Assembly (NCBI GenBank): GCA_902610975.1
Contig: CACLXL010000001.1
Location: 186,001-250,000 of the forward strand
Direction: 5' to 3'
DNA length: 64,000 bases
Source: an uncultured Pelagibacteraceae bacterium
GTDB lineage: Bacteria; Pseudomonadota; Alphaproteobacteria; Pelagibacterales; Pelagibacteraceae
A model generated the notes under the pieces. The model was not told where the DNA came from and ran no database searches. It saw only the letters and a program-made list of their open reading frames with translations. The number at the start of each line of letters is the position of its first letter. The stretch's first letter is position 1. Below, piece after piece: positions 50,358 to 62,681 of the stretch. A program made the translations under genes and the position numbers.

Positions 50358-50978
50358 ATGAAGGTTAAAATTTGCGGTTTGCACCCGGTTAGAGACGTGC
50401 AACTTTGTATTGAACTAGGAATAGATTTTTTAGGTTTCGTATTTTACGAAAAATCTCCACGAAATTTAAACGTAGACGACGTTCATAAACTAAAGCAGTA
50501 CAATAAACAAAATTCATTTTTTACTGCTGTAACAGTAGATCCGACTAATGAATTTATCAAAAAAGTAGTTTTGAAAAACTTCGATTATATTCAGCTACAT
50601 GGTTCAGAAACTGCTGAGCGAGTTAAGGAAATTAAAGCGATGGGAATTAAAATTATTAAAACAATAAAGATTAGAGAGGGCTTAGATATAAATAAATATA
50701 AAGAATATGAAGATGCTGACATTATTTTATTTGATACTCCTGGCATGGAAAAATCAATCGAGTTCCCTAGAAATCTTATATCAAAACTGCCTAAAGGAGA
50801 TAGATACGCATTAGCAGGCTCAATCAGCATAGATAATATAGAAAATATAGTAAAATTAGGGGTTAACTTTTTTGATTTATCGTCTAGTTTAGAATCTAAA
50901 TTAGGACAAAAAGATCATTTAAAAGTCAAAAGTTTTATGAATAAAATCAAACAATTCAATGAGCACAGAAAAAATTAA
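50358..50978 (+). CDS. trpF: Phosphoribosylanthranilate isomerase
   Basis: Third step from anthranilate in tryptophan synthesis. The 206-residue barrel has KICGLHPVRDV with the catalytic Cys, IQLHGSETAERV and LFDTP with the general acid Asp. It overlaps trpB by 20 bases, forming trpF-trpB-trpA. Confidence 0.92.
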   Translation: MKVKICGLHPVRDVQLCIELGIDFLGFVFYEKSPRNLNVDDVHKLKQYNKQNSFFTAVTVDPTNEFIKKVVLKNFDYIQLHGSETAERVKEIKAMGIKIIKTIKIREGLDINKYKEYEDADIILFDTPGMEKSIEFPRNLISKLPKGDRYALAGSISIDNIENIVKLGVNFFDLSSSLESKLGQKDHLKVKSFMNKIKQFNEHRKN

Positions 50979-52149
50979 AAATTCTTTAAAAACTGGTTCT
51001 GATAAAGACGGCTATTTCGGTGAATATGGAGGAATAGCAGCTGGAGAGAATTTAATGAATAATCTTGAAGAGCTTAAAAAAGCTTTTGAAGATGCAATTA
51101 AAGATAAAAAATTCTTAGATGAATTTGCTTATTACTGCAAACATTGGATTGGAAGGCCCAGCCCGATATATTTTGCCGAACGAATAACAAAAAAAATTGG
51201 TGGAGCAAAAATTTATTTTAAACAAGAACATTTAAATCATACAGGCAGTCACAAACCTACAAATACTTTGTTTCAAGTTTTACTGGCAAAAAGAATGGGT
51301 AAGAAAAAAATTATTTGTGAATCTGGAGCAGGTCAACATTGGTCTGCGGCTGCGGCTACTGCTGCTAAGTTTGGTATGCCAATTGTAGGGGTGATGGGGA
51401 AAATTGACTGCGCCCGGGTTAATCAAAATTTAATAAAAGCTAAACATTATGGGGGAAAGCTCAAGATTGTTGAAGGCTCGCTTCGCGAAGCTATAACAGC
51501 GGCTATAAAAGAATGGTCTAACAATCCAGATTATTACTATTTAATTGGTTCAACATGTTCTTCTTCACCATTTGTTGATATCGTAAGATACGCTCAAAGT
51601 ATCATCGGAAAAGAAATGAGAGAGCAGTTTATGGAACTTGAAGGAAAACTTCCTAATGAAATAATAGCATGTGCTGGAGCGGGTAGTAATTTTACCGGTT
51701 CAATTTTTGAATTTTTGGATGAGCCTGAAATTAAAAAAGTTGTTGTTGAAGCTGAAGAGACTGCTGCTTTAACTAATGGTACAAAAGGAATTCAGCAAGG
51801 TATGGTTACGAAATTTCTTCAATCAGATGACGGATCAAAGTCACTTGGCGGAAGTTCACTCGGAGCTGGAATTATGTACTACGGAATATCTCCTCAACTA
51901 GCACATCTTAAAGATATTGGTGCAATAGAAGCCTCCGCTGCAAGTGATAAGGAACTTTTAGAGACTTATAAGCTTGTCGCACAAAACGAAGGTATAGGAA
52001 TTTCATTTGAACCTGCTGCGGCAGTTACTGAAGCTTTGAAAAGAGCCAAAGGTAAACCTAAAGACTATATTATCTGTGCCACAGCATGTGGAAGAGTAGA
52101 AAAAGACCTTGATGTAATTGAACGCTTAATAGGTAAAGATTTTGAGTAA
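50959..52149 (+). CDS. trpB: Tryptophan synthase beta chain
   Basis: PLP enzyme joining indole and serine. The 396-residue protein has HLNHTGSHKPTNT with the PLP lysine, ESGAGQHWSAAAATAA, CAGAGSNFTGS and GRVEKDLDVIE. It starts within trpF and overlaps trpA by 8 bases. Confidence 0.95.
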   Translation: MSTEKIKNSLKTGSDKDGYFGEYGGIAAGENLMNNLEELKKAFEDAIKDKKFLDEFAYYCKHWIGRPSPIYFAERITKKIGGAKIYFKQEHLNHTGSHKPTNTLFQVLLAKRMGKKKIICESGAGQHWSAAAATAAKFGMPIVGVMGKIDCARVNQNLIKAKHYGGKLKIVEGSLREAITAAIKEWSNNPDYYYLIGSTCSSSPFVDIVRYAQSIIGKEMREQFMELEGKLPNEIIACAGAGSNFTGSIFEFLDEPEIKKVVVEAEETAALTNGTKGIQQGMVTKFLQSDDGSKSLGGSSLGAGIMYYGISPQLAHLKDIGAIEASAASDKELLETYKLVAQNEGIGISFEPAAAVTEALKRAKGKPKDYIICATACGRVEKDLDVIERLIGKDFE

Positions 52150-52945
52150 TAGATTTAAAAAGATTTTCTCTAATAAATCACAAAAAACAAAAATGATAGC
52201 TTACTTCGTTGCTTGTTATCCTAATTTTGAAAAATCATTAGAAATAATCAAGAAATCGATAGATGCCGGAGTTAATATTTGTGAAATTGGTTTTCCGACA
52301 CAGGAGGCAAGTGGTGAAGGAATAGTTATTAAAAATGCTCATGATCATTGCTTGCAAAGAAATGTTACTTTAAAAGATACTATAAAATTGGCTAAAGCTG
52401 TCAGAAACTATAACAATGATGTTGGCATAATTTTAATGGGCTATATGTCTAATATCTTCAAATATCCTATTAAAAACTTTGTGAGTGACTTAGCTTCAGT
52501 AGACGTTGATGGGTGTTTAATTGTCGATGCACCACATGAATTACGAGAAGAGAATGAGCTTAGAAACTTGATGAATAAAAAAAATCTTTCTTTGATAAAA
52601 TTAGTGGCTCCAACAACTAAAGAAGAAAGGCTTAAAAAATTATCAAATTTATTTTCTGGTTGGGTTTACAGTCTAAATTTTTCTGGCATCTCAGGTTCTA
52701 AATCAGCTAATTTGGAAGACGTTAAAAATATGATAAAAAAAATTAAAACTTATACCGATTTACCTGTTTGCTCAGGATTCGGTATCAAAACACCCGGAGA
52801 TGCAAAAAAAATGACCCAGACTGGTTGTGATGGTGTTATTGTTGGTTCTAGTATAGTTGAATACATAGGAAAAAATTTAAATGACACTAAATTGCCAAAA
52901 AATGTTGGAAATATAATTAAAACTTTTGTAGAAGAATTAAAATGA
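52142..52945 (+). CDS. trpA: Tryptophan synthase alpha chain
   Basis: Cleaves indole-3-glycerol phosphate to indole, passed to TrpB. The 267-residue barrel carries CEIGFPTQEASGEG with the catalytic Glu, MGYMSNIFKYP, DAPHELREE, SLNFSGISGSK and CSGFGIKTPGD. It overlaps accD by 4 bases. Confidence 0.93.
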   Translation: MSNRFKKIFSNKSQKTKMIAYFVACYPNFEKSLEIIKKSIDAGVNICEIGFPTQEASGEGIVIKNAHDHCLQRNVTLKDTIKLAKAVRNYNNDVGIILMGYMSNIFKYPIKNFVSDLASVDVDGCLIVDAPHELREENELRNLMNKKNLSLIKLVAPTTKEERLKKLSNLFSGWVYSLNFSGISGSKSANLEDVKNMIKKIKTYTDLPVCSGFGIKTPGDAKKMTQTGCDGVIVGSSIVEYIGKNLNDTKLPKNVGNIIKTFVEELK

Positions 52946-53895
52946 ATTGGATTCAAAAAAAATTGCAAAGCTTTGTAGAAAAAGCAAAAGAAACTTTTAA
53001 GCGAGAAAGACCTTCAAGGAAAGATCAAGATGATAGCATGTGGGTTAATTGTCCTGGTTGTAACCAAATGTTGTTAAAGGAAGATTTGAGAAAAAATTTT
53101 AATGTTTGTAAATGTTCATATCATTTTGATTTAGATCCAAAAATAAGATTTTCAGAAATGCTTTTTGATGATGGTGAGTACGAATTAATTGAATGTCCCG
53201 AATGGGCAGATCCAGACCCTCTAAATTTTAAAATTGGAGATAAGAAATTTATTGATAAATATAATGCTTACAAAAAGAAAACTGGTCAACAAAGTGCTAT
53301 TCTTGCAGCTAAAGGTACAGTAAACGGATTAAAGATAATTGCTTTTGGTTATAATTTTCAACACGGCGGAGCAGCCTTAACTCAAAGAGAGGGTGAACAT
53401 TTGCTTTCAGGAATTCAAACGGCTCTTAATGAAAAAGTCGATGCAGTAGTTTCCTTTTATCAAAGTGGTGGTATGGCTGTCACGGGAAATCTTAATTCAT
53501 TAAAAAATATGCCAGTACAAATGATGGCAATGAAAATGTTAAAAAAAGCTGGAATAGTAACCATTGGAATTTGTGGATCAAAAATTACTGGAGGAACATT
53601 TTGTAATGTTTATGGTAATGACTTTATTTTTGCAGAAAATCCAAAGAGTGAGAATCTTTTGTTCGCTGGAAAAATAGTTTCTGCTTCAGTCAATAAAGGT
53701 CAAGAATTACCACAAGACTTTGGTCAAGCTTCGAGTATAGTTGATCATGGTATGATCGATGGAGTTTTCCATTCAAGAATGGAAATAAGAGAAAAGATAA
53801 CAAATTTAATAAGAGTTATTCTTAAAAAATCTGAAATAGAAGCTAAAGCTGAGTCAACATCTAATGTCAAAGTTGATCTACAATCAGCTAGCTAA
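52942..53895 (+). CDS. accD: Acetyl-CoA carboxylase carboxyltransferase beta
   Basis: Partner of AccA. The 317-residue protein has an N-terminal zinc knuckle and the carboxyltransferase core (GGAALTQREGEH, FYQSGGMAVTGN, GICGSKITGGTFCNVYG). The knuckle is C37-x2-C40...C56-x-C58; the second pair is one residue shorter than the usual CxxC. Gene order trpB-trpA-accD-folC is widespread. It overlaps folC by 32 bases. Confidence 0.93.
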   Translation: MNWIQKKLQSFVEKAKETFKRERPSRKDQDDSMWVNCPGCNQMLLKEDLRKNFNVCKCSYHFDLDPKIRFSEMLFDDGEYELIECPEWADPDPLNFKIGDKKFIDKYNAYKKKTGQQSAILAAKGTVNGLKIIAFGYNFQHGGAALTQREGEHLLSGIQTALNEKVDAVVSFYQSGGMAVTGNLNSLKNMPVQMMAMKMLKKAGIVTIGICGSKITGGTFCNVYGNDFIFAENPKSENLLFAGKIVSASVNKGQELPQDFGQASSIVDHGMIDGVFHSRMEIREKITNLIRVILKKSEIEAKAESTSNVKVDLQSAS

Positions 53896-55120
53896 TCACA
53901 AGTTATTTAACAAATCTATTAAGTTTGGTCTTAAAAGAATAAAGCTAGCGCTTAAATTATTAGGAAATCCTGAAAAGAAGCTTAATAATGTTATACAGGT
54001 AATTGGAGAGTCTGGAAAGTTCACAACTTTATACTCATTGAAATCATTTATAGAAGCTAATGGTCAAACTACCACAATGCATATTTCTCCTTCACTAAAA
54101 GATATTAGAGAAAGATTCTATATGGGAAATAGATATCTTTCACATAAAGAAATTAAAAAAACTATTAATCAAATTGAAAAATTAAAAATTCCATTAACAG
54201 TGTATGAGTGTCTTACTCTTGTGTTTATTTTGAATGCGTCCAAACTAAATACTAACTACAATATACAAGAAACCGGAGCCTTATGGCGACTCGACTCAAA
54301 TAACGTCCACGACTTTCCAGTAATACAAATTTGCACAAATATAAATAAGCAACACTTAAATTTTTTGAAAAAAAAAACTTTAAATGAAATAATTAAAGAA
54401 GATGTTGCTTACCTGAATAATTTTACAAATATTTACATTGGAAAACAAACGCCTTACGTTCTTCAAAAAATTAAAGTGCATTTAAAAAAAAACAAAAGCA
54501 AGATAGTGTATCCAGAAACTTGGAAAATAATTAAAAGTGGTAATTCATTTTATTACAAGGATAAAAAAACTATGATTAGGCTAAATACTAAACATGTTTA
54601 TTCGAAAGGGATGAGAGAAAATGTTTGTCTTGCAATCAAAGTAGCGTTAGATCTCAAAATTGATAAGAAAATTATTCAAAAAACTTTACCAAAACTCTTT
54701 TTTGAAGGTCGTTTCCAGTATTTAAGAAAAGGTAAAATAAAAAAGAAACTTCAAAAAAATGAGTCAATTATGGTCGATGGAGCTCACTCACCTTGGGATG
54801 CAAAAAATATCTCAAACTATCTTAAAACTATCAAAAAACCTAAATATGCAATTTTAGCAATGATGAAAAATAAACAATCAGACTTGTTTGTCAAAAATTT
54901 AAGAGGTGTTTTTAAAAAAATTTACACAGTTCCAATTGAAAATGAAAAAGGATCTCTTAAATCAAAAGAATTACACAAAATAGCATCAAATAATAAAATT
55001 AACTCTGAAAGTTGTAAAAATTTTGATGAAGCTTTAAAAAAAATAAGCTCAAAAGAAACTAAATTATGCGTTGTTCTGGGTTCACTTTATCAAATTGGTA
55101 ATGTGTTAAAAAAGAACTAG
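53864..55120 (+). CDS. folC: Divergent FolC (folylpolyglutamate/dihydrofolate synthase)
   Basis: A 418-residue Mur-ligase-like protein in the folC position after accD. It keeps FEGRFQYL and DGAHSPWDAKN, close to YPGRFQ and DGAHNP. Other motifs are degraded: the P-loop reads GESGKFTT (48-55) instead of GTNGKGST, and the ExGxGGRxDxTN motif is ETGALWRLDSNN. Position and C-terminal motifs support FolC, but ATP binding may be altered. Orthologues in the same clade would show if this is a lineage trait. It overlaps convergent thioredoxin by 4 bases. Confidence 0.75.
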   Translation: MSKLIYNQLANHKLFNKSIKFGLKRIKLALKLLGNPEKKLNNVIQVIGESGKFTTLYSLKSFIEANGQTTTMHISPSLKDIRERFYMGNRYLSHKEIKKTINQIEKLKIPLTVYECLTLVFILNASKLNTNYNIQETGALWRLDSNNVHDFPVIQICTNINKQHLNFLKKKTLNEIIKEDVAYLNNFTNIYIGKQTPYVLQKIKVHLKKNKSKIVYPETWKIIKSGNSFYYKDKKTMIRLNTKHVYSKGMRENVCLAIKVALDLKIDKKIIQKTLPKLFFEGRFQYLRKGKIKKKLQKNESIMVDGAHSPWDAKNISNYLKTIKKPKYAILAMMKNKQSDLFVKNLRGVFKKIYTVPIENEKGSLKSKELHKIASNNKINSESCKNFDEALKKISSKETKLCVVLGSLYQIGNVLKKN

Positions 55121-55434
55121 ATGTGCTGGTTTATCCAAGAGACTATGTCAGCTTTATTTGACATTCCAACTTTTTGTGAGACTAGCTTTGAGTCAACATA
55201 CAAAAAAAGAGAGGGAACGCCGCGCACAGAATTTAAAGTGGGAAAATTAGGATCTGAGTCTATATCATGTTTTGCAATTACAATTTTATCTTTCATGTCA
55301 GAAGCAATTTCGTCAAGAATCGGTGATAGGGCAGAACATGGAGAACACCAAGTTCCAAAAAAATCAAAAATAATAACTTTATTTTCTTTAATAAGTTTCT
55401 CGTAAGTATTATCTGTAGACTTTATCGTAGACAT
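55117..55434 (-). CDS. trxA: Thioredoxin
   Basis: A 105-residue thioredoxin fold protein. The active site is WCSPC (Cys30, Cys33) instead of the usual WCGPC, after FFGTW; the cis-proline segment is VRGVPSLFLY. Length and fold match thioredoxin 1, though the Ser variant may shift its redox potential. Confidence 0.87.
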   Translation of the reverse strand: MSTIKSTDNTYEKLIKENKVIIFDFFGTWCSPCSALSPILDEIASDMKDKIVIAKHDIDSDPNFPTLNSVRGVPSLFLYVDSKLVSQKVGMSNKADIVSWINQHI

Positions 55435-55478: not shown

Positions 55479-55679
55479 TTACTTATATATCGATAATTGT
55501 TTATAACATTTAGGTTTTTTATTGGATCTACCTATTTCAATTCGTCTGCCGTTCTCTAATATACAGTAAATATACCAATAAGGCTTGAATTGAAAATCGA
55601 CATCTCTAATCTCTTCTATTCGAATTTCTGTAACAGAATTATTTAATTCCTTTTCGTGTAATTTAATGATGTTTCTCAT
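55479..55679 (-). CDS. Unknown 66-residue protein, last gene of the exonuclease operon
   Basis: A short protein with an acidic start and IEEIRDVDFQF, YWYIYCILENGRRIEIGRS; the predicted pattern is beta strands ending in a basic tail. No family is recognised. It overlaps the 121-residue gene upstream by 17 bases, so it belongs to the 58720-55479 minus-strand run. Confidence 0.5.
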   Translation of the reverse strand: MRNIIKLHEKELNNSVTEIRIEEIRDVDFQFKPYWYIYCILENGRRIEIGRSNKKPKCYKQLSIYK

Positions 55680-56028
55680 TATTTTTTTTTTTATCTTTAT
55701 TTAACATTGGTAAAATAGTTTTATCTATCCATTCATGCTGTAATTTAACTGTTTTATCGTATTCTTTAATAAATTCTTCCATAATTTCTATATCAACTTT
55801 AGCACGCTCGTAATCCCGTCTATCCTTCAAATGATTAAGGTATTTAAGAATTTTGGTTGGTAAATTTAAAATAAAGATAAATAAACTCGTAAAAGGAGAT
55901 CTCGCTAAAAGCCTAAGCTCTCTTTGTTTATAAAGTGCACGGTAAGTAAAGTAATCATCCATTCGACTTAAATAATCTTCTCTAGCTTTTATACTTTCTT
56001 TAAAATATTTGTAAATTTTATTGCTCAT
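55663..56028 (-). CDS. Unknown 121-residue helical protein
   Basis: Charged helical protein with a short hydrophobic patch (SPFTSLFIFILNLPTKILKYL, split by proline) flanked by Arg/Lys-rich helices. It may be membrane-associated or simply helical; no family is recognised. It lies 4 bases after the exonuclease gene and overlaps the next small gene by 17 bases. Confidence 0.55.
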   Translation of the reverse strand: MSNKIYKYFKESIKAREDYLSRMDDYFTYRALYKQRELRLLARSPFTSLFIFILNLPTKILKYLNHLKDRRDYERAKVDIEIMEEFIKEYDKTVKLQHEWIDKTILPMLNKDKKKNNEKHH

Positions 56029-56032
56029 GTCA

Positions 56033-57472
56033 TTAAATGTATTTTTCGTAATTTGATTGCATATTAAAAAGATACTTATCGAGTTTAATTAATTTTTTCA
56101 TTTTTTCGTTATCTTCATCATTTTCAGCTTGTAGCTTTAAAGTATCAAGCCTTGCAAACTGAGCAGGTATATTCGTAAATACTGAGTCATCTCCATCATT
56201 GTTTAAAATAAAACTCGCTATTCTTTTTTTTATTCTTGTGTAATCTCTTTTACTTAATATCTTAATAAAATCTTCTTCGGTATGTTCCTCATAAATAACC
56301 ATTTCAGCTAAAGTCTTTATTTCATCTCTTTTAAATTTATTAAATATCTTTTTCTTTTCGTCATTTGTTTCCGCTAGATTAAATGCATCCATTAATTTTC
56401 TCTCTTCAATAGATGGATTTAATTTGTAAATCATTTGTTCAGGCTCTAATTTTCGCTGATCATTTTCCATTTTTTCATCGAGTCTCTCTTGTTGAATTGT
56501 CTTAATTTTATTTAATATTTCCTCTCTATTTTGACTTATAACTTTTTGTCTTCTCTCTAATTCTTTCATTCCCAGGTTTTTATAAACATCATCATTAAGA
56601 GCATATTTTTTATCCATTAAAAGAGGCGAACGGTTTGCCTTCTGGGTTCTGCACCATTTAGGTGATGCATCCAATTCTTTTTTAAATGCATCAGTGTCAT
56701 TTAAAACACTCAGAATTTCTTCTGGTGGTTTACGAAGATCATACGTCAAGTACCAGGAAGGGTAGATCCCTTCTCCAAGTAACGTTCCCGCATATATCTT
56801 TGCAACCCTCCATGCTTCCATCCAACAGAAAATGGGAGTCGATTGGAGTTTAGGAAATACATCGGGTTTTCTTCTTAAAGCTAGAGACGCCTTAAAAACT
56901 TCAGGAGCTTTCTTAGCTAACAACTCTCCTAACTTCATAGTACTGACAGTATCTCCATAGCTAGTATGAGCTACAGTTTTTATATTATTCACTCTACAAA
57001 CTGACTCGAGTTTATATATGGGTAAATTTTTATCGTTTAGTTCAAAAGAGATAGAATTAGGTGCAAAAAGATTTACTGATCTCACGACAGGTAATAAATC
57101 AAACGAGTCGGAATTAGTCAGATAAGGCCAACGTAAATTCACAAATAAACTATGATTTAGTAAGACTGTATCGTAGTTATGATTATTAAATCCAACAAAT
57201 ATAGCTCCCATTTTTTTCCACTTAGTAAATTTCTCTTCTAATTTTTTTAGCATCACGCCATACGTGTCCTGTTTCATCAAATAATCAACATCGAGTCCAT
57301 TAACTAGCATGGCGTCGACCTCTAGAGGTCTACTTTTTCTTGGTCTAGCAGACAAAGTAAACTCATCTAAGATTTGAAATTTATCGTTTGAAAGAACTCC
57401 AGAAATTTGGAGGACAGATGCCTTACCGCATGCACCTGAGTCACTTTCAATATCGAACCATGCAAAAATCAT
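56033..57472 (-). CDS. DEDDh exonuclease, ExoI-like
   Basis: A 479-residue protein whose first 180 residues form a DEDDh exonuclease domain: WFDIES (Asp7, Glu9), NNHNYDTVLL (Asp101) and H169-x4-D174 in AHTSYGD. The middle (about 190-280) with FCWMEAWRVAKIYAG resembles ExoI/SbcB-type proteins, and the C-terminus is a long charged helical region. It likely degrades DNA or RNA 3'-5'. It lies 12 bases after the S24-like gene and is the catalytic member of this accessory operon. Confidence 0.75.
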   Translation of the reverse strand: MIFAWFDIESDSGACGKASVLQISGVLSNDKFQILDEFTLSARPRKSRPLEVDAMLVNGLDVDYLMKQDTYGVMLKKLEEKFTKWKKMGAIFVGFNNHNYDTVLLNHSLFVNLRWPYLTNSDSFDLLPVVRSVNLFAPNSISFELNDKNLPIYKLESVCRVNNIKTVAHTSYGDTVSTMKLGELLAKKAPEVFKASLALRRKPDVFPKLQSTPIFCWMEAWRVAKIYAGTLLGEGIYPSWYLTYDLRKPPEEILSVLNDTDAFKKELDASPKWCRTQKANRSPLLMDKKYALNDDVYKNLGMKELERRQKVISQNREEILNKIKTIQQERLDEKMENDQRKLEPEQMIYKLNPSIEERKLMDAFNLAETNDEKKKIFNKFKRDEIKTLAEMVIYEEHTEEDFIKILSKRDYTRIKKRIASFILNNDGDDSVFTNIPAQFARLDTLKLQAENDEDNEKMKKLIKLDKYLFNMQSNYEKYI

Positions 57473-57484
57473 ATTTTTATTTTC

Positions 57485-58720
57485 CTAAGCTCTTTTCTTT
57501 TTAATATCTTCATTTGACATTCCGTCTGACTCATCAGAAAATAAATTTGGCTCAGACTTAAGTCCTCTGCTTAAAAACTCTGGAATTTCAAAATCCTGGT
57601 CGAATAAATTTTTATTCATAATAGTCTTGTTTTCATTAGTAAATCCTGATTTCCAAATTACTTTGCCAATTATATAATCTTTTCTAGGTTTGCCTTTATT
57701 GTCCAATGCAGCAATAGTCTGTCTAGAATACTTGTTATTATCTGGAATAGAAATAATCTGATAAGTATCTTTGAACATCGTAAATTGCAGTCGTCTAATA
57801 CATATCTTATTAAATTCTTTGACAACAAATAAACCTCCTTTAAATGCATTTGTTTCACCTAAAGTTGTCTTTATAGCCAAACATTCATCACCAATTGAAA
57901 TTGCAGGACTCATATAATCATCATCGACTTTAATTAAAAATAATTTAGAAAAATCACTAATTGAAAAGTTTTTACGAATTGCACTTTTCTTCATTAAAAA
58001 GCCATCTGATTTTGAATTAATAAAGTTTATCTTTTTATACTCTGAAGGTGAAAAGAAGTTAGGCAGAAAGGTTTTTCTTAAACTCTCACAAATTATATAA
58101 AAATCTTTAATTGCTTTTATTTCTAATTCAAAATTCTTGTACTCGTCGGTATAAGTTTCTTTAATATCATCGATAGCTTCAAAATCTTCAACTATCATAT
58201 TCTGTAGCCAATCTTCTGTGTTTTGATATCCTTGTAAAAATCCAATATAATCTTCATACTTTTCAGGCTCAATTTTTTCAATATACTTGTCTAAAATAGT
58301 TAATTCATCTTGATCAAAAATATCATTCTTGTTTATTGAGATATTTTCCCCAGATCCTATTTTAATACCTGGATTAAGACTGCTAATTGCTAATATGTGA
58401 TGCTCTAGTGCTGGGATTAAAAGTTTTTCAATAACTCCCCCATTTTTACTTATCATGTTATAAAATAAATCAAATCTACTAATTTTTTCTTTAGGATTGT
58501 GTTTTTTAGCTAAAGCGCGATAAATACTTAAAAGGAAGAAGTAAGAAAAACTTCTTGGAAATATTTTTTTATCGTATCTATAAATATAACCTACCAACGA
58601 ATTCCTATGATGTGAAAGTGTTAGAGAACATTGACTTTGGGATAAGCCAGCAAACTTTAATAAATTAGTTAAAAGTAGCTTATTAATAGACAATAATGAA
58701 TTTCTAGAATCCATACTCAT
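57485..58720 (-). CDS. S24/LexA-like protein with catalytic dyad lost
   Basis: A 411-residue protein with an N-terminal helical half and a C-terminal S24-like domain (about 258-360). The core motif reads DDDYMSPAISIGDE (266-279), where Tyr269 replaces the catalytic Ser of the D-S-M-x-P motif. The second catalytic position, V-K-R-L in the family, is IRRL (308-311), so the Lys is Arg. Self-cleavage is therefore unlikely. The start ATG 58720 could also be 58714. It probably acts as a DNA-binding or sensor protein for the operon below it. Confidence 0.7.
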   Translation of the reverse strand: MSMDSRNSLLSINKLLLTNLLKFAGLSQSQCSLTLSHHRNSLVGYIYRYDKKIFPRSFSYFFLLSIYRALAKKHNPKEKISRFDLFYNMISKNGGVIEKLLIPALEHHILAISSLNPGIKIGSGENISINKNDIFDQDELTILDKYIEKIEPEKYEDYIGFLQGYQNTEDWLQNMIVEDFEAIDDIKETYTDEYKNFELEIKAIKDFYIICESLRKTFLPNFFSPSEYKKINFINSKSDGFLMKKSAIRKNFSISDFSKLFLIKVDDDYMSPAISIGDECLAIKTTLGETNAFKGGLFVVKEFNKICIRRLQFTMFKDTYQIISIPDNNKYSRQTIAALDNKGKPRKDYIIGKVIWKSGFTNENKTIMNKNLFDQDFEIPEFLSRGLKSEPNLFSDESDGMSNEDIKKKRA

Positions 58721-58758
58721 TATATATACTTATTTTATGCAAAAATAAAGTAAAAAAA

Positions 58759-58778
58759 AGTCAATTTTACTGTTGACA
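58759..58778. promoter_or_regulatory. Back-to-back TTGAC elements between divergent genes
   Basis: On the plus strand TTGACA at 58773-58778, and on the minus strand TTGACT at 58759-58764, form an inverted repeat GTCAA-8-TTGAC. On the plus side TTAAGT lies 17 bases downstream (58796-58801). These are candidate -35 elements of divergent promoters for the S24-like operon and the rmuC operon, or one shared operator. Confidence 0.4.
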
Positions 58779-58807
58779 TGCAAAGATTTGTGTGATTAAG
58801 TGCTTTT

Positions 58808-58887
58808 ATGAGTAAAAAAAAGACGAATATTAGGATGTTCTTTCCTTTCTACCTTTCTGATCCTTTTACTTGTCTTTTTTTACTCAT
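58808..58887 (+). promoter_or_regulatory. Long inverted repeat in the leader of the rmuC operon
   Basis: ATGAGT-A8-GAC (58808-58824) and GTC-T7-ACTCAT (58872-58887) are near-perfect complements (one extra A) around a 47-base interior. It lies between the candidate promoter and the Shine-Dalgarno AAGGAG (58896-58901). If transcribed it would fold into a 16-bp stem at the 5' end. Confidence 0.5.
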
Positions 58888-58907
58888 TAACAAAAAAGGA
58901 GAAAAAA

Positions 58908-59291
58908 ATGCCTAAAACAAAAAAAAACAAGTCAAAAAACAATGTAGTTCCTTTCAATAAGCCTAAAATAGATAAAGAGGCTGATGAAAAACTAAAGTTA
59001 AGAGAAAGTGAAAAAGACCGATTAAACACTGTGTTAAAACAAAAGTGCGATGAGATAATAGAAATTATAGATACAAGTCAAATCGATAAACAGTGGGGTG
59101 TCTATGCAGCTCTTTTCCATGTAAAACAAATGGGCGTATTTAATCTTCATACTTCAGATTATGATTTAGCCAACAAAACATCTTCTGATGAAATTATGAA
59201 GAACCAAAGAGAATATCTGCAAACGTCTTTTCCGCAATTTGTGAACAATGATGAAAATAGTGAAGAAACTACAAAAAAGGTACTACACTAA
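58908..59291 (+). CDS. Unknown 127-residue protein before rmuC
   Basis: A basic N-terminus (KTKKNKSKNN) is followed by helical charged residues and a central segment DKQWGVYAALFHVKQMGVFNLH, with an acidic tail. No family is recognised. A strong Shine-Dalgarno (AAGGAG) precedes the ATG. The stop is one base into rmuC, so the two are coupled. Confidence 0.7.
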   Translation: MPKTKKNKSKNNVVPFNKPKIDKEADEKLKLRESEKDRLNTVLKQKCDEIIEIIDTSQIDKQWGVYAALFHVKQMGVFNLHTSDYDLANKTSSDEIMKNQREYLQTSFPQFVNNDENSEETTKKVLH

Positions 59292-60454
59292 TGCTTGAAC
59301 CCTTAATCTATACATTAGTTGGATTTGCCCTAGCCTCTGTATTTTGGTTTTTATACTTTAAGACTAAAAGCTCAAACTTAGTTGATAGATCTGCACTTGA
59401 AGAGAAAGCTATATTAAATACAAAACTAGAGGGTCAAATCGCAGCTTTTCATAAAGAAGTTGCGTTATTAAATAAAGCAAAAGACGAGATAGGTAACACT
59501 TTAAAATTAGAAAGAGAAAATGCAAAAGAGCAGTTAAAAACTATAAACAACGTTGAAAAATGGAGAGTAAATACTGAAAGAGACGTAAAAAAGTATGAAG
59601 AGTATGTTAACGATACAAAGAATTTCGTAGATAAATTAACTGGAAACGTGAAATACCAAGGTGATTTTGGTGAAAAGCTGCTTGTTAAACTTTTAGAAAT
59701 TCACGGTTTGTCTCTAAACATTGACTTTACAGTGCAGGAGGGCAATAAAGTTTATGATCAAGTAGATGATGAGTTGCTGCAAAGAGTAAGACCTGATGTA
59801 ATTATGAATTTATCGAAGAACGACCATGTAGTTGTTGACAGTAAAGTGTCTTTGATTGAATGGAAAAATTTTGTAAACGAAAAAAAAGATGAGAAAGAAA
59901 GACAAATACATTTAAAGAAACATATTTCAGCTATAGATAAACATATTACAACTTTATCTGGAAGAAATTATCAAAAATTGCTCGGTAAAAATGTTTTTCC
60001 TAGTGTCATTTTATTTATTCCTTTTGTGCCTGCTTACTTAGCTGCGATAGAAGAAGATACTGAATTAATGGATAGAGCTTATAAAAAAAACGTTATTTTG
60101 ACTTGTCCGGGTTCTTTATTGCCCGTAATAAAAATTATCGAGACTATTAAAAGTAAAGACAAACAATTAGAAAATGTAAAAGAGATCTCAAAGAATGCTA
60201 CTTTTTTAATTGACAAGTTTGTTTCACTTAAGAAATCTTTAAAAGGTACGATTAAATCATTCAGAGATCATGCACTAAACTTACAAAAAGTTATTGACAC
60301 TGGATGGGGTTCAAAAAATTCATTAGAGAAATCGTTTGAGAAGTTTCAGAAAAAACATGGTTTAAATGAAGCTAAAGATATGCCTACAAGTTCTGTGGAA
60401 GAAGACCAAATCATAGATATCAATGATCCAGAGGATAAAACAGCTGTAAACTAA
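59291..60454 (+). CDS. rmuC: RmuC-family DNA recombination protein
   Basis: A 387-residue RmuC protein: one N-terminal membrane segment (about 5-22), a coiled coil (about 40-115) and the RmuC nuclease-like domain with GDFGEKLLVKLLEIHGL, RPDVIMNL, HVVVDSKVSL and LFIPFVPAYLAA. The D..DSKV motif is a PD-(D/E)XK-like core. RmuC limits DNA inversion in E. coli, and homologues appear near defence genes. It is divergent from the exonuclease operon. Confidence 0.88.
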   Translation: MLEPLIYTLVGFALASVFWFLYFKTKSSNLVDRSALEEKAILNTKLEGQIAAFHKEVALLNKAKDEIGNTLKLERENAKEQLKTINNVEKWRVNTERDVKKYEEYVNDTKNFVDKLTGNVKYQGDFGEKLLVKLLEIHGLSLNIDFTVQEGNKVYDQVDDELLQRVRPDVIMNLSKNDHVVVDSKVSLIEWKNFVNEKKDEKERQIHLKKHISAIDKHITTLSGRNYQKLLGKNVFPSVILFIPFVPAYLAAIEEDTELMDRAYKKNVILTCPGSLLPVIKIIETIKSKDKQLENVKEISKNATFLIDKFVSLKKSLKGTIKSFRDHALNLQKVIDTGWGSKNSLEKSFEKFQKKHGLNEAKDMPTSSVEEDQIIDINDPEDKTAVN

Positions 60455-60455
60455 T

Positions 60456-60536
60456 ATGAAAAAACACTTAGAATATACTGACGCTAAATCTAATAAGTTC
60501 TGGAAGATAGAGCTTAAAGGTAAATCGATTTTTTGA
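60456..60536 (+). pseudogene. WGR-domain N-terminal remnant
   Basis: ATG 60456 opens a 26-residue frame beginning MKKHLEYTDAKSNKFWKIEL, close to the start of WGR domains (LEFTD..SNKFWEIEL). It stops at 60534-60536, far short of a full domain. It starts one base after the rmuC stop. It is probably a leftover of a deleted gene. Confidence 0.5.
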
Positions 60537-60623
60537 AGTTTCATTCATGACTTTAAATGCTTCAAAAAATTCTTTAGTAAGTTTTAAATCTTTTGGTAAT
60601 TCTGTATTTTTTTCTAGTGGCAT
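60468..60623 (-). CDS. Small 51-residue open frame, possible truncated gene
   Basis: ATG 60623 starts MPLEKNTELPKDLKLTKEFF followed by EAFKVMNETSKNRF, with orderly protein-like composition. The C-terminal part overlaps the WGR remnant on the other strand, and likely reads into unrelated sequence after about residue 33. It is probably the 5' end of a second gene, fused at a deletion junction near 60530. Confidence 0.4.
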   Translation of the reverse strand: MPLEKNTELPKDLKLTKEFFEAFKVMNETSKNRFTFKLYLPELIRFSVSIF

Positions 60624-60627
60624 TATT

Positions 60628-61581
60628 TTAAATGTATTCTAAAATTTTTTTTGCAGGAATTGTTTTTTTAATCCAGGCTAATGGAATGTTTCTATCTTTT
60701 AATGCTGCAAAGTAACTTCCGCAGAAAATTGCCCGGCTAACGTTACAGCCTCCGGCTTTGATTGTTTTAATAATAGCCTGTTCATAATTACTTGAGGTAA
60801 TTACACAATGAACCGAACTTTTAAAATTTCCAGGATCTGAACATGCTTTGCCTAACATGCGAGTGACTTTAGTATGATCTTGATTTTTAAATTTGAACAC
60901 CCTCTTAATGTCTTTAATTACTTCTTTAAAATACTTATTTTTCTTATTCAATTTAATAAATTTTTGAATAGGATTTTTTTCTCTCTGACTTGCTAAATCT
61001 ATAATTTTCAATCTAGCCAAACCGTAGACTTCGTTTGTGTGTGAATCTGCTGCAATTCTAATAACTTTTTTAACTTCCTTATCATCCTTACTTACTAAAA
61101 AATAATACGGTATCGCGGCATTGAAACCATCTGTTTCTTGAACGACATTTAAACCTCCTTTAACTCTTTTTTTACTTTTAATTTTCTTAATGGCCACAAG
61201 TGTATTTTGATGTATCCAATTTCCTTTAAGCGGTTTTAGCCATTTTTTTTTCTTGTACTTACGTCTCTCATTTAAGTTCTTATAATAAATAGAACCAGGC
61301 CCAAAATGTGTAACTAAGTTTTTTTTAAAATTTTCAATTATTTCTAATTTTTTTTTTGATGTTATTATTGTTTGAAACATTACCTGAGCCATGTCGTTGT
61401 AACCGCTAACGGCTCCCAGGGGTATAGAATAAAAAGGACATTTGTTTTCTCTAAAAAAAGCTATATCTTTTTTGCCTTTAATATAACTTTTTAATTTTTT
61501 AGGATCATAAACCCAATGTAAAGGTCTCGCTGCTGCATCGGCAACTGTAGCTCCTAATAAAATTTTTAGACCTTCATACAT
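60628..61581 (-). CDS. ADP-ribosylglycohydrolase / J1-crystallin-like protein
   Basis: A 317-residue protein. The N-terminus GATVADAAARPLHWVYD and SGYNDMAQVM, and the C-terminal KAGGCNVSRAIFCGSYFAAL, match the ADP-ribosylglycohydrolase fold. In the J1-crystallin/selenoprotein J branch the C-terminal motif has GGCNxSR rather than the GGDxD of typical hydrolases, as here. It may remove ADP-ribose or have another ligand. It overlaps rlmN by one base. Confidence 0.75.
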   Translation of the reverse strand: MYEGLKILLGATVADAAARPLHWVYDPKKLKSYIKGKKDIAFFRENKCPFYSIPLGAVSGYNDMAQVMFQTIITSKKKLEIIENFKKNLVTHFGPGSIYYKNLNERRKYKKKKWLKPLKGNWIHQNTLVAIKKIKSKKRVKGGLNVVQETDGFNAAIPYYFLVSKDDKEVKKVIRIAADSHTNEVYGLARLKIIDLASQREKNPIQKFIKLNKKNKYFKEVIKDIKRVFKFKNQDHTKVTRMLGKACSDPGNFKSSVHCVITSSNYEQAIIKTIKAGGCNVSRAIFCGSYFAALKDRNIPLAWIKKTIPAKKILEYI

Positions 61582-62681
61582 TAGTTTATTTTTTTATTTA
61601 CCGGCAAACTTGAGGTTCTTAACTGTCCACAACCACTTAATGATTTTTGATCAGCGCCGCCACTTCTTCTTACCGTCACAATAAATCCTGCATTTTTAAC
61701 TATTTGAGCAAATTCATTTGTCTTATCTTCAGAGACAGGTTTTATTTTACATCCTGGCCATGTATTCATAAAAATTAAATTTAATTTAGACGGAAACTGT
61801 TTCATTACTTTTACTAACTCTCTTGCATCTTCCGGGCTGTCATTAATTCCTTTCATGAGAGTATATTCGACAAACACTTTCTCTTTCACAACACTAGTGT
61901 AATATTTACAACTTTTAATAACTTCTTCTAAAGGATATTTTTTATTTATAGGAATGACTTTATTTCTTTTTTCATTTGTTCCTGCGTGAATTGAAAGCGC
62001 TAAATGCACCCCTACCTCATCAGTAAATTGAATAATTTTATCTGGTACTCCAATAGTTGATAAAGTTATCGATTTTTTTCCCATATGAATTCCCTCAGGT
62101 TCCATTAAAATTTTAATAAATTGTTTTGTTTCTATATAATTTGTTAACGGTTCTCCTGATCCCATGAGCACTACTCTACTTAAAAGTCTTTGATCCCCAA
62201 AATCATTGAGGTATCTTTTTGCTATCATCATTTGCATAACTATTTCACTAGCAGATAAATTTTTAACTAATAGCTGCGTTCCAGTTGCACAATGAATACA
62301 AGCACTATTTTTTGACATCGCACATCCAACCTGCACTGATACACAAATAGTGTTATGTGATTTACTAGGTATTAATACGACCTCAATTAAATTTTTGTTC
62401 TCATCATTTAATTCTAAAAGCCATTTAATTGTTTTATCGCCTGCGACTTCTTTTTTTAAAATTTTTGGTAATTCTAAAGATAAAACATTATCTAATTTTT
62501 TTCTTAGTTCAAATGTAACTGTGGTTAAATCAGAAAAGCTTGTTATACCTTTTTGGTATATTCCCTTGTAAAGTTGTTGAGCCCTCATTTTAACTTTGCT
62601 TTCTTCAACTCCAATCTTTTCAATAAGGAAATTTTTCAGTTCCTCAAAAGATAAACCGTAAAAGTTTTGCTTTTTTTGCAT
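61581..62681 (-). CDS. rlmN: RlmN-like radical SAM methyltransferase with CX7CX2C motif
   Basis: RlmN makes m2A at 23S A2503 and m2A37 in tRNA. The 366-residue protein keeps the family's catalytic Glu (LIEVVLIP), the SAM region VVLMGSGEPLTNY, and the C-terminal methyl-accepting Cys (about 351) in SGCGQL. The cluster motif, CxxxCxxC in the family (GCALECKFC in E. coli), is GCAMSKNSACIHC here: C120-x7-C128-x2-C131, with four extra residues. It overlaps the J1-crystallin-like gene by one base. Confidence 0.85.
   Translation of the reverse strand: MQKKQNFYGLSFEELKNFLIEKIGVEESKVKMRAQQLYKGIYQKGITSFSDLTTVTFELRKKLDNVLSLELPKILKKEVAGDKTIKWLLELNDENKNLIEVVLIPSKSHNTICVSVQVGCAMSKNSACIHCATGTQLLVKNLSASEIVMQMMIAKRYLNDFGDQRLLSRVVLMGSGEPLTNYIETKQFIKILMEPEGIHMGKKSITLSTIGVPDKIIQFTDEVGVHLALSIHAGTNEKRNKVIPINKKYPLEEVIKSCKYYTSVVKEKVFVEYTLMKGINDSPEDARELVKVMKQFPSKLNLIFMNTWPGCKIKPVSEDKTNEFAQIVKNAGFIVTVRRSGGADQKSLSGCGQLRTSSLPVNKKIN

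What the first reader, a model, noticed from the sequence alone, without database searches (positions are those of the whole stretch)
55479..60454. Candidate accessory module: dead S24 protein, ExoI-like exonuclease and RmuC
Two divergent units share a short control region. The minus unit holds a 411-residue S24-like protein with both catalytic residues replaced (Ser to Tyr269, Lys to Arg309), an ExoI-like DEDDh exonuclease with intact D7/E9/D101/H169/D174, and two unknown small proteins. The plus unit holds an unknown 127-residue protein and RmuC. Two nucleases with a degenerate phage-repressor-like sensor could form a DNA-damage or anti-phage system. Family calls come from visible motifs; the joint function is inference.
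Basis: partly seen in the sequence, partly recalled or inferred. Interest (0 to 1): 0.72.

Follow-up and report, generated by a model that had tools for sequence, protein, structure and literature searches.

The report
Repressor-linked ExoI–RmuC swap cassette, SAR11
In about 3% of the sampled SAR11 ocean bacteria, the cell's only copies of two DNA-processing genes (ExoI and RmuC) sit in the usual place on the chromosome but as a different version, placed back to back around a phage-repressor-like protein that has permanently lost its self-cutting activity, probably to keep them in check until foreign or damaged DNA appears.

Summary
All six genes are present. The S24-like protein has Tyr269/Arg309 in place of the Ser/Lys dyad, and the ExoI catalytic residues are intact. 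The interpretation needs changing. ExoI and RmuC are not accessory: ExoI is found in 182 of 197 Pelagibacterales genomes, almost always as one copy, and RmuC as exactly one copy in 24 of 24 checked. They normally sit side by side next to trxA.

What varies is the version. In 11 of 397 genomes (30 distinct proteins, all Pelagibacteraceae, including cultured HTCC9565) the pair is replaced by a divergent cassette: S24-like–ExoI on one strand, small genes–RmuC on the other. S24-linked and unlinked ExoIs split on one 100/100 branch that cuts across genera. The S24 fold is confirmed (LexA, Z 12.4). The dyad is lost wherever the domain survives. A candidate operator overlaps the RmuC-side promoter and occurs once per genome in five carriers; the window keeps only half of it.

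Best reading: a replacement allele of the ExoI–RmuC pair controlled by a non-cleavable CI/LexA-like repressor, probably protecting against foreign DNA. The arrangement is shown; repression is likely; the trigger and anti-phage role are inferred.

The parts
57485..58720 (-). S24-like regulator (411 aa): XRE-like helix-turn-helix, helical linker, dead S24 domain, disordered tail
58382..58720 (-). N-terminal domain (residues 1-113), XRE/HTH-like
   Evidence: AF2 pLDDT 88; best matches are R-M controller proteins C.BclI, C.Esp1396I, C.EcoT38I, C.AhdI and the CapH N-terminal domain, Z 5.5-6.1
57635..58045 (-). S24-fold domain (about residues 226-362) with Tyr269/Arg309 in place of the Ser/Lys dyad
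   Evidence: LexA 3k2z Z 12.4; also UmuD', 186 CI and lambda CI; residues
57572..57595 (-). short linear motif DFEIPEFL in the disordered tail, resembling the SSB C-terminal tip (DDEIPF)
   Evidence: 21 of 30 family tails against 0.03 expected in shuffles; 1 of 889 other proteins; SSB tails of relatives
56033..57472 (-). ExoI (SbcB)-like 3'-5' DEDDh exonuclease, the only copy found in this 76%-complete genome
55663..56028 (-). small helical protein p121; the family is found in 29 of 30 cassettes, on either side of S24
55479..55679 (-). small protein p66, downstream of p121, in the window's own subclade and G094
58768..58784 (+). candidate operator TACTGTTGACATGCAAA: left half of the palindrome TACTGTTGACAACAGTA that is complete in other cassettes
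58773..58801 (+). promoter-like TTGACA-17-TTAAGT for p127-RmuC, overlapping the candidate operator
   Evidence: and direct reading
58805..58890 (+). long inverted repeat (16 nt arms, 94% complementary, 54 nt apart) in the p127 leader, kept in relatives L073, L083, L086 and L087
58908..59291 (+). small protein p127, first gene of the RmuC unit
59291..60454 (+). RmuC with N-terminal transmembrane-like segment and intact PD-(D/E)XK motif; the only RmuC found in the genome
60468..60623 (-). remnant (51 codons) of a PIF1-like helicase that is whole in relative G346 (499 aa)
55117..55434 (-). trxA, left border of the slot in most genomes examined
60628..61581 (-). ADP-ribosylglycohydrolase-like gene (ARH), right border of the slot in this genus

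Best explanation
The cassette is a replacement allele of the chromosomal ExoI-RmuC pair. In most Pelagibacterales the slot beside trxA holds plain ExoI and RmuC. Here the same slot holds a distinct ExoI and an RmuC with an intact nuclease motif, arranged divergently around a CI/LexA-type DNA-binding protein. SHOWN: same slot; one copy of each nuclease per genome; fixed S24-ExoI order and divergent RmuC unit; S24 fold with the dyad lost; deep co-inheritance of S24 with its ExoI. LIKELY, NOT SHOWN: the S24-like protein binds the control region, represses the small-gene/RmuC promoter through an operator on the -35 box, and autoregulates its own operon with ExoI. INFERRED: repression is lifted without self-cleavage, perhaps because its tail (DFEIPEFL, like an SSB tip) docks on a partner such as ExoI when single-stranded DNA builds up; the outcome is raised ExoI and membrane-anchored RmuC activity against foreign or damaged DNA, as RmuC does in the Shield system.
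For: ExoI in 182/197 genomes, nearly always one copy; one RmuC in 24/24. Congeners G118 and G038 carry trxA-ExoI-RmuC-ARH-rlmN where the window carries trxA-p66-p121-ExoI-S24|p127-RmuC-ARH-rlmN. S24 in 11/397 genomes and 29 loci, all Pelagibacteraceae. S24 directly precedes ExoI in 29/29 testable loci, 28 of them with gaps of -4 to 12 nt, and RmuC is divergent in 29/29. ExoI tree: linked and unlinked split at 100/100, across genera; RmuC agrees weakly, 83/74. S24 fold, HTH-like N-terminus, dead dyad. Palindrome TACTGTTGACAACAGTA on the -35 box in distant cassettes, one site per genome in five carriers; other lineages have other palindromes there. Purifying selection. RmuC motif intact in 29/29 cassettes but Lys-to-His in the standard pair of six g1/g3 genomes. 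RmuC-domain ShdA gives phage defence (PMC10270631).
Against: The window keeps only the left half of the palindrome although its N-terminal domain is 95% identical to that of L083, which has the complete site. Eight of the 30 distinct S24 proteins have lost the S24 core altogether, so that domain is not indispensable. The HTH call rests on Z 6 at best. There are no expression, binding or phage data. Because these nucleases are the only copies, strong repression of ExoI would remove a housekeeping activity.
Confidence: 0.6

Rival explanations
1. A dedicated anti-phage system: the cassette is a defence unit whose nucleases attack phage DNA, and it happens to be inserted at a defence hot spot.
For: Slot neighbours in relatives include an Eco57I-type R-M set, a C5 methylase, a Cas4-RNaseH-helicase protein with a Mokosh-like helicase part, and PIF1 and WGR proteins. 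RmuC is the effector of Shield (PMC10270631). Patchy distribution.
Against: ExoI and RmuC are core single-copy genes that are replaced, not added. PADLOC hits are only to generic RT-associated SbcB/RmuC and DEDDh models, and the standard SAR11 ExoI scores even better on the first and last of these. No phage challenge data.
Confidence: 0.3
2. An SOS-like DNA-damage response module with an S24 sensor.
For: S24 fold, two nucleases, divergent control region.
Against: The Ser/Lys dyad is gone in every member that keeps the domain, so RecA-stimulated self-cleavage is not expected. All 24 genomes checked hold other S24-family proteins with strong PF00717 matches, of LexA-like or UmuD-like size.
Confidence: 0.12
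3. The S24-like protein is not a transcription factor but a protein partner of ExoI (chaperone, inhibitor or recruiter); the divergent layout is incidental.
For: Coupled genes (gap -4 to 12 nt), loss of the S24 core in one branch, and an SSB-tip-like motif in the tail.
Against: HTH-like N-terminus, among the best conserved parts of the protein, and the locus-specific palindromes. E. coli ExoI Arg148 and Tyr207, recalled as SSB-tip contacts, are not conserved here (alignment).
Confidence: 0.15
4. Neutral mosaicism: an S24 phage-repressor relic hitch-hikes with a horizontally exchanged ExoI allele and has no regulatory role.
For: Heavy recombination around the slot; neighbouring trpB, accD and rlmN also look like xenologues.
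Against: dN/dS of 0.07-0.2 for S24; order and orientation kept across cassettes whose S24 proteins are about 30% identical.
Confidence: 0.08

Closest known systems
E. coli exonuclease I (SbcB), PRK11779 / PDB 1fxx
   Same: DEDDh catalytic residues and match over most of the length
   Different: 70.7 bits against an equivalog cut-off of 260; lies in an S24-linked branch apart from other SAR11 ExoIs
RmuC (COG1322, PF02646) and ShdA of the Shield anti-phage system (PMC10270631)
   Same: RmuC domain, N-terminal transmembrane-like segment, PD-(D/E)XK motif
   Different: Shield is reported only from Pseudomonas, with ShdB-E partners or alone; here RmuC is the cell's only copy and is tied to ExoI and an S24-like protein
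Bacteriophage 186 CI / lambda CI / LexA repressors
   Same: N-terminal HTH plus S24-fold C-terminal domain
   Different: helical linker of about 110 residues and a disordered tail; no Ser/Lys dyad; tied to ExoI and RmuC rather than a prophage
R-M controller (C) proteins and CapH
   Same: HTH regulators beside nuclease or defence genes; best fold matches of the N-terminal domain
   Different: C proteins are single-domain; CapH has a partner protease CapP, and no protease gene is in the window's cassette
Replacement flexible genomic islands (PMC4033161)
   Same: fixed slot with similar functions but different genes, exchanged across lineages
   Different: those are described as typically coding exposed cell structures; here the swapped genes are core DNA nucleases

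Membership tests
LexA/CI-type self-cleaving S24 repressor | S24 fold in the C-terminal half | tested here: met
   residues 230-360, Z 11-12.4 to LexA
LexA/CI-type self-cleaving S24 repressor | Ser/Lys catalytic dyad | tested here: not met
   Tyr269/Arg309; Tyr, Asn or Leu and Arg in all members that keep the domain
LexA/CI-type self-cleaving S24 repressor | N-terminal HTH DNA-binding domain | tested here: inconclusive
   confident model (pLDDT 88); matches mostly HTH proteins but Z at most 6.1
Exonuclease I (SbcB) | DEDDh catalytic residues | tested here: met
   D7, E9, D101, H169, D174 invariant
Exonuclease I (SbcB) | curated equivalog score | tested here: not met
   70.7 against 260 bits for PRK11779: a divergent homologue, not an equivalog by score
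RmuC (PF02646) | family score above the gathering cut-off | tested here: met
   168.7 against 26 bits
RmuC (PF02646) | PD-(D/E)XK motif | tested here: met
   RPDVIMN...VVVDSK; kept in 29/29 cassettes
Shield anti-phage system | ShdA-type RmuC protein with ShdB-E partners or alone | not tested
   ShdA sequences were not compared; no ShdB-like gene is named in the cassette
Shield anti-phage system | protection against phage | not testable with these tools
   needs an experiment
DRT (reverse transcriptase with RTasSbcB/RTasRmuC) | a reverse transcriptase in the unit | tested here: not met
   no RT domain among the cassette proteins
CapH/CapP, ImmR/ImmA-type protease-controlled repressor | partner metallopeptidase in the unit | tested here: not met
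   none in the window cassette; some relatives have a GHKL-like protein with a C-terminal HELSH motif, without family support
Replacement flexible genomic island | fixed locus, equivalent function, different alleles across lineages | tested here: met
Replacement flexible genomic island | recombination signature at the borders | not tested
   no SNP-density analysis was made

The most novel reading that the evidence does not exclude
A SAR11-specific switch in which the cell's only ExoI and RmuC are exchanged for a repressor-controlled version, and the repressor, no longer able to cut itself, reads ssDNA status through an SSB-tip-like tail that competes for ExoI, releasing the RmuC operon during phage infection or fork collapse.
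Probability: 0.13. Interest if true: 0.82.

Novelty: new variant of a known kind. Interest (0 to 1): 0.52.

Why it matters
SAR11 are among the most abundant cells in the sea and have very small genomes with few regulators. A fixed slot where single-copy recombination nucleases are traded as whole regulated alleles means that core DNA metabolism, not only the cell surface, is part of what these cells exchange, possibly under phage pressure. It also supplies a family of S24 regulators in which self-cleavage is lost throughout, and a cultured strain (HTCC9565, L097) carries a version (without the S24 core) that can be tested.

Tried and rejected
Prophage origin: no match of the S24-like protein in 50,697 phage records or IMG/VR, and only one weak ExoI match in phages. 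DRT system: PADLOC hits to RTasSbcB/RTasRmuC, but no RT, and the standard SAR11 ExoI scores higher on the same model. Spread beyond SAR11: 337 Alphaproteobacteria gave only G000 and one marginal S24-domain hit (E 1.7e-4); the short-pattern scan of GTDB contigs found only Pelagibacteraceae but would miss distant relatives. Tight SSB-tail mimicry: Arg148 and Tyr207 of E. coli ExoI (contacts recalled from memory, not checked against a paper) are not conserved in these ExoIs (alignment), so the motif is kept only as a lead. Consensus promoter scan: no more hits than shuffles. PDB search by sequence with the S24-like protein gave nothing useful, and with the GHKL-like protein of relatives none. The p127 alignment with c28 and the 108-114 aa ORFs is too weak to call one family.
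Full report
OBSERVATION. Family scans give RmuC strongly (168.7 bits), ExoI moderately (PRK11779, 70.7 bits, E 9e-20) and S24 weakly (18.7 bits, under the cut-off); the three small proteins match nothing credible. Tyr269 and Arg309 occupy the catalytic Ser and Lys positions. D7, E9, D101, H169 and D174 of ExoI are invariant among 13 Pelagibacterales ExoIs, and a profile of them matches E. coli ExoI 1fxx at E 2e-41.

EXOI AND RMUC ARE CORE, NOT ACCESSORY. Among 197 genomes of the order, 182 hold an ExoI, nearly always a single copy. All 24 genomes checked hold exactly one RmuC. In congeners without S24 (L045, L046) the order is folC> <trxA <ExoI <RmuC <ARH <rlmN. In the window it is folC> <trxA <p66 <p121 <ExoI <S24 | p127> RmuC> <ARH <rlmN. 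The borders are the same; the interior is a different allele, with the RmuC half facing the other way. In the other main genus the right-hand border differs but the left one (folC/trxA) is the same. G000 is only 76% complete, so 'only copy' is inferred for it; the same holds in the 99%-complete carrier G024.

THE S24-LINKED ALLELE. The S24-like protein occurs in 7 of 197 genomes by single sequence and in 11 of 397 by profile. A GTDB scan gave 29 loci, all Pelagibacteraceae, including isolate HTCC9565. Over 30 distinct proteins, S24 directly precedes ExoI on the same strand in all 29 loci with sequence on that side (28 with gaps of -4 to 12 nt, one annotated overlap of 50 nt), and the RmuC unit is divergent in all 29 loci that hold RmuC. 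A p121-type small protein is present in 29 of 30; p127 in 19 and the similarly placed c28 in 8. Variable extras are WGR (16), a 530-aa protein with GHKL-like and HELSH motifs (12), a Cas4-RNaseH-helicase protein (13) and a 150-200 aa protein c14 (16). The ExoI tree separates 29 S24-linked from 23 unlinked sequences by one branch with 100/100 support, each side holding both genera g1 and g3. RmuC shows the same split at 83/74. S24 and its ExoI have therefore travelled together for a long time and have entered different genera at the same slot. Within the window's subclade the parts also recombine: L086 has ExoI 96% but S24 68% identical, L083 has S24 96% but RmuC 78%.

THE S24 PROTEIN. AlphaFold2 on 11 sequences gives mean pLDDT 71. 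Residues about 226-362 match LexA (3k2z, Z 12.4), UmuD', 186 CI and lambda CI, so the S24 fold is confirmed. The N-terminal 113 residues, folded alone, reach pLDDT 88 and match mostly HTH proteins, led by R-M controller proteins and the CapH N-terminal domain, at Z 6.1 or less; this is consistent with, not proof of, a DNA-binding domain. The dyad is lost wherever the domain survives (Ser to Asn, Tyr or Leu; Lys to Arg), and 8 of the 30 distinct proteins (HTCC9565 type, and G315) have lost the domain core altogether. Every genome checked has other S24-family proteins with strong PF00717 matches, of LexA-like or UmuD-like size. The tail is disordered (pLDDT under 50) but keeps a [DE]x[DEQ][IV]PxF motif in 21 of 30 proteins, against a shuffle mean of 0.03; related sequences inflate this count, but only 1 of 889 other proteins in these loci has it. 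It resembles the SAR11 SSB tip, DDEIPF. That is a lead only.

CONTROL REGION. Several cassettes, from both distant ExoI branches, carry the palindrome TACTGTTGACAACAGTA with the -35 hexamer TTGACA in its centre. In five carriers it occurs once in the genome, at the cassette; five other genomes, including G000, have none within one mismatch. Other lineages carry different palindromes in the same region (TTGTCAAATGACAA, CACTTTACAAAAAAGTG). The window keeps the left half (TACTGTTGACATGCAAA, 58768-58784). Since L083 has a nearly identical N-terminal domain and the complete site, either the half-site suffices or the real operator is different. A long inverted repeat in the p127 leader is kept in four relatives; its role is unknown.

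FUNCTION. Selection is purifying. All 29 cassette RmuCs keep PD-(D/E)XK, whereas the standard RmuC of six g1/g3 genomes has His for the Lys. The swap may thus bring in a nuclease-competent RmuC; this is inference. RmuC of Shield degrades DNA and protects against phage, and its partners restrain it (PMC10270631). RmuC was predicted to be a PD-(D/E)XK nuclease (PMC1189080). The slot also receives R-M genes. These points make a role against foreign DNA the most likely benefit, but no experiment supports it here.

COMPARISON AND NOVELTY. The event is like the replacement flexible islands of aquatic prokaryotes (PMC4033161), but with core nucleases and an attached regulator. A search for papers naming both SAR11 and RmuC gave one paper with a single mention of each. 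The arrangement is filed as a new variant of a known kind.

Noticed in passing
window 50959-52149, 52942-53895, 61581-62681: trpB is only 31-35% identical to trpB of three relatives that are 77-83% identical to each other across genera; accD (32-34%) and rlmN (41% to G118 but 94% to G346) also look like in-place xenologues around the same slot.
   Followed up: partly
L045, L046, L049, L052, L079, L082 (standard RmuC): The standard RmuC in these g1/g3 genomes has the PD-(D/E)XK lysine replaced by histidine and lacks the PD, suggesting altered or lost nuclease activity.
   Followed up: partly
L039:11666-13258 and relatives: 530-aa protein with an N-terminal GHKL-like ATPase motif and a C-terminal HELSH zincin motif, in 12 of 30 cassettes; no Pfam or PDB support.
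   Followed up: partly
L039:15001-18405, L042:2820-6179: 1100-aa Cas4-like + RNase_H_2 + SF1 helicase protein near RmuC in 13 of 30 cassettes; the helicase part resembles MkoA of Mokosh.
   Followed up: partly
window 60468-60623: 51-codon remnant of a PIF1-like helicase that is complete (499 aa) in G346 (L073:13029-14528).
   Followed up: yes
L041:2541-8317 and L074: Eco57I-type methylase, T5orf172/ResIII helicase-nuclease and a methyltransferase inserted next to the cassette ExoI.
   Followed up: partly
L051, L077, L078 (G034, G094, G173): Congeners with RmuC-ExoI-p121 in one direction and no S24 (p127 also present in G034 and G094), a third allele of the slot.
   Followed up: partly
window 58805-58907: Long inverted repeat and a possible short ORF, out of frame with p127, in the p127 leader, conserved in the window's subclade.
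   Followed up: no
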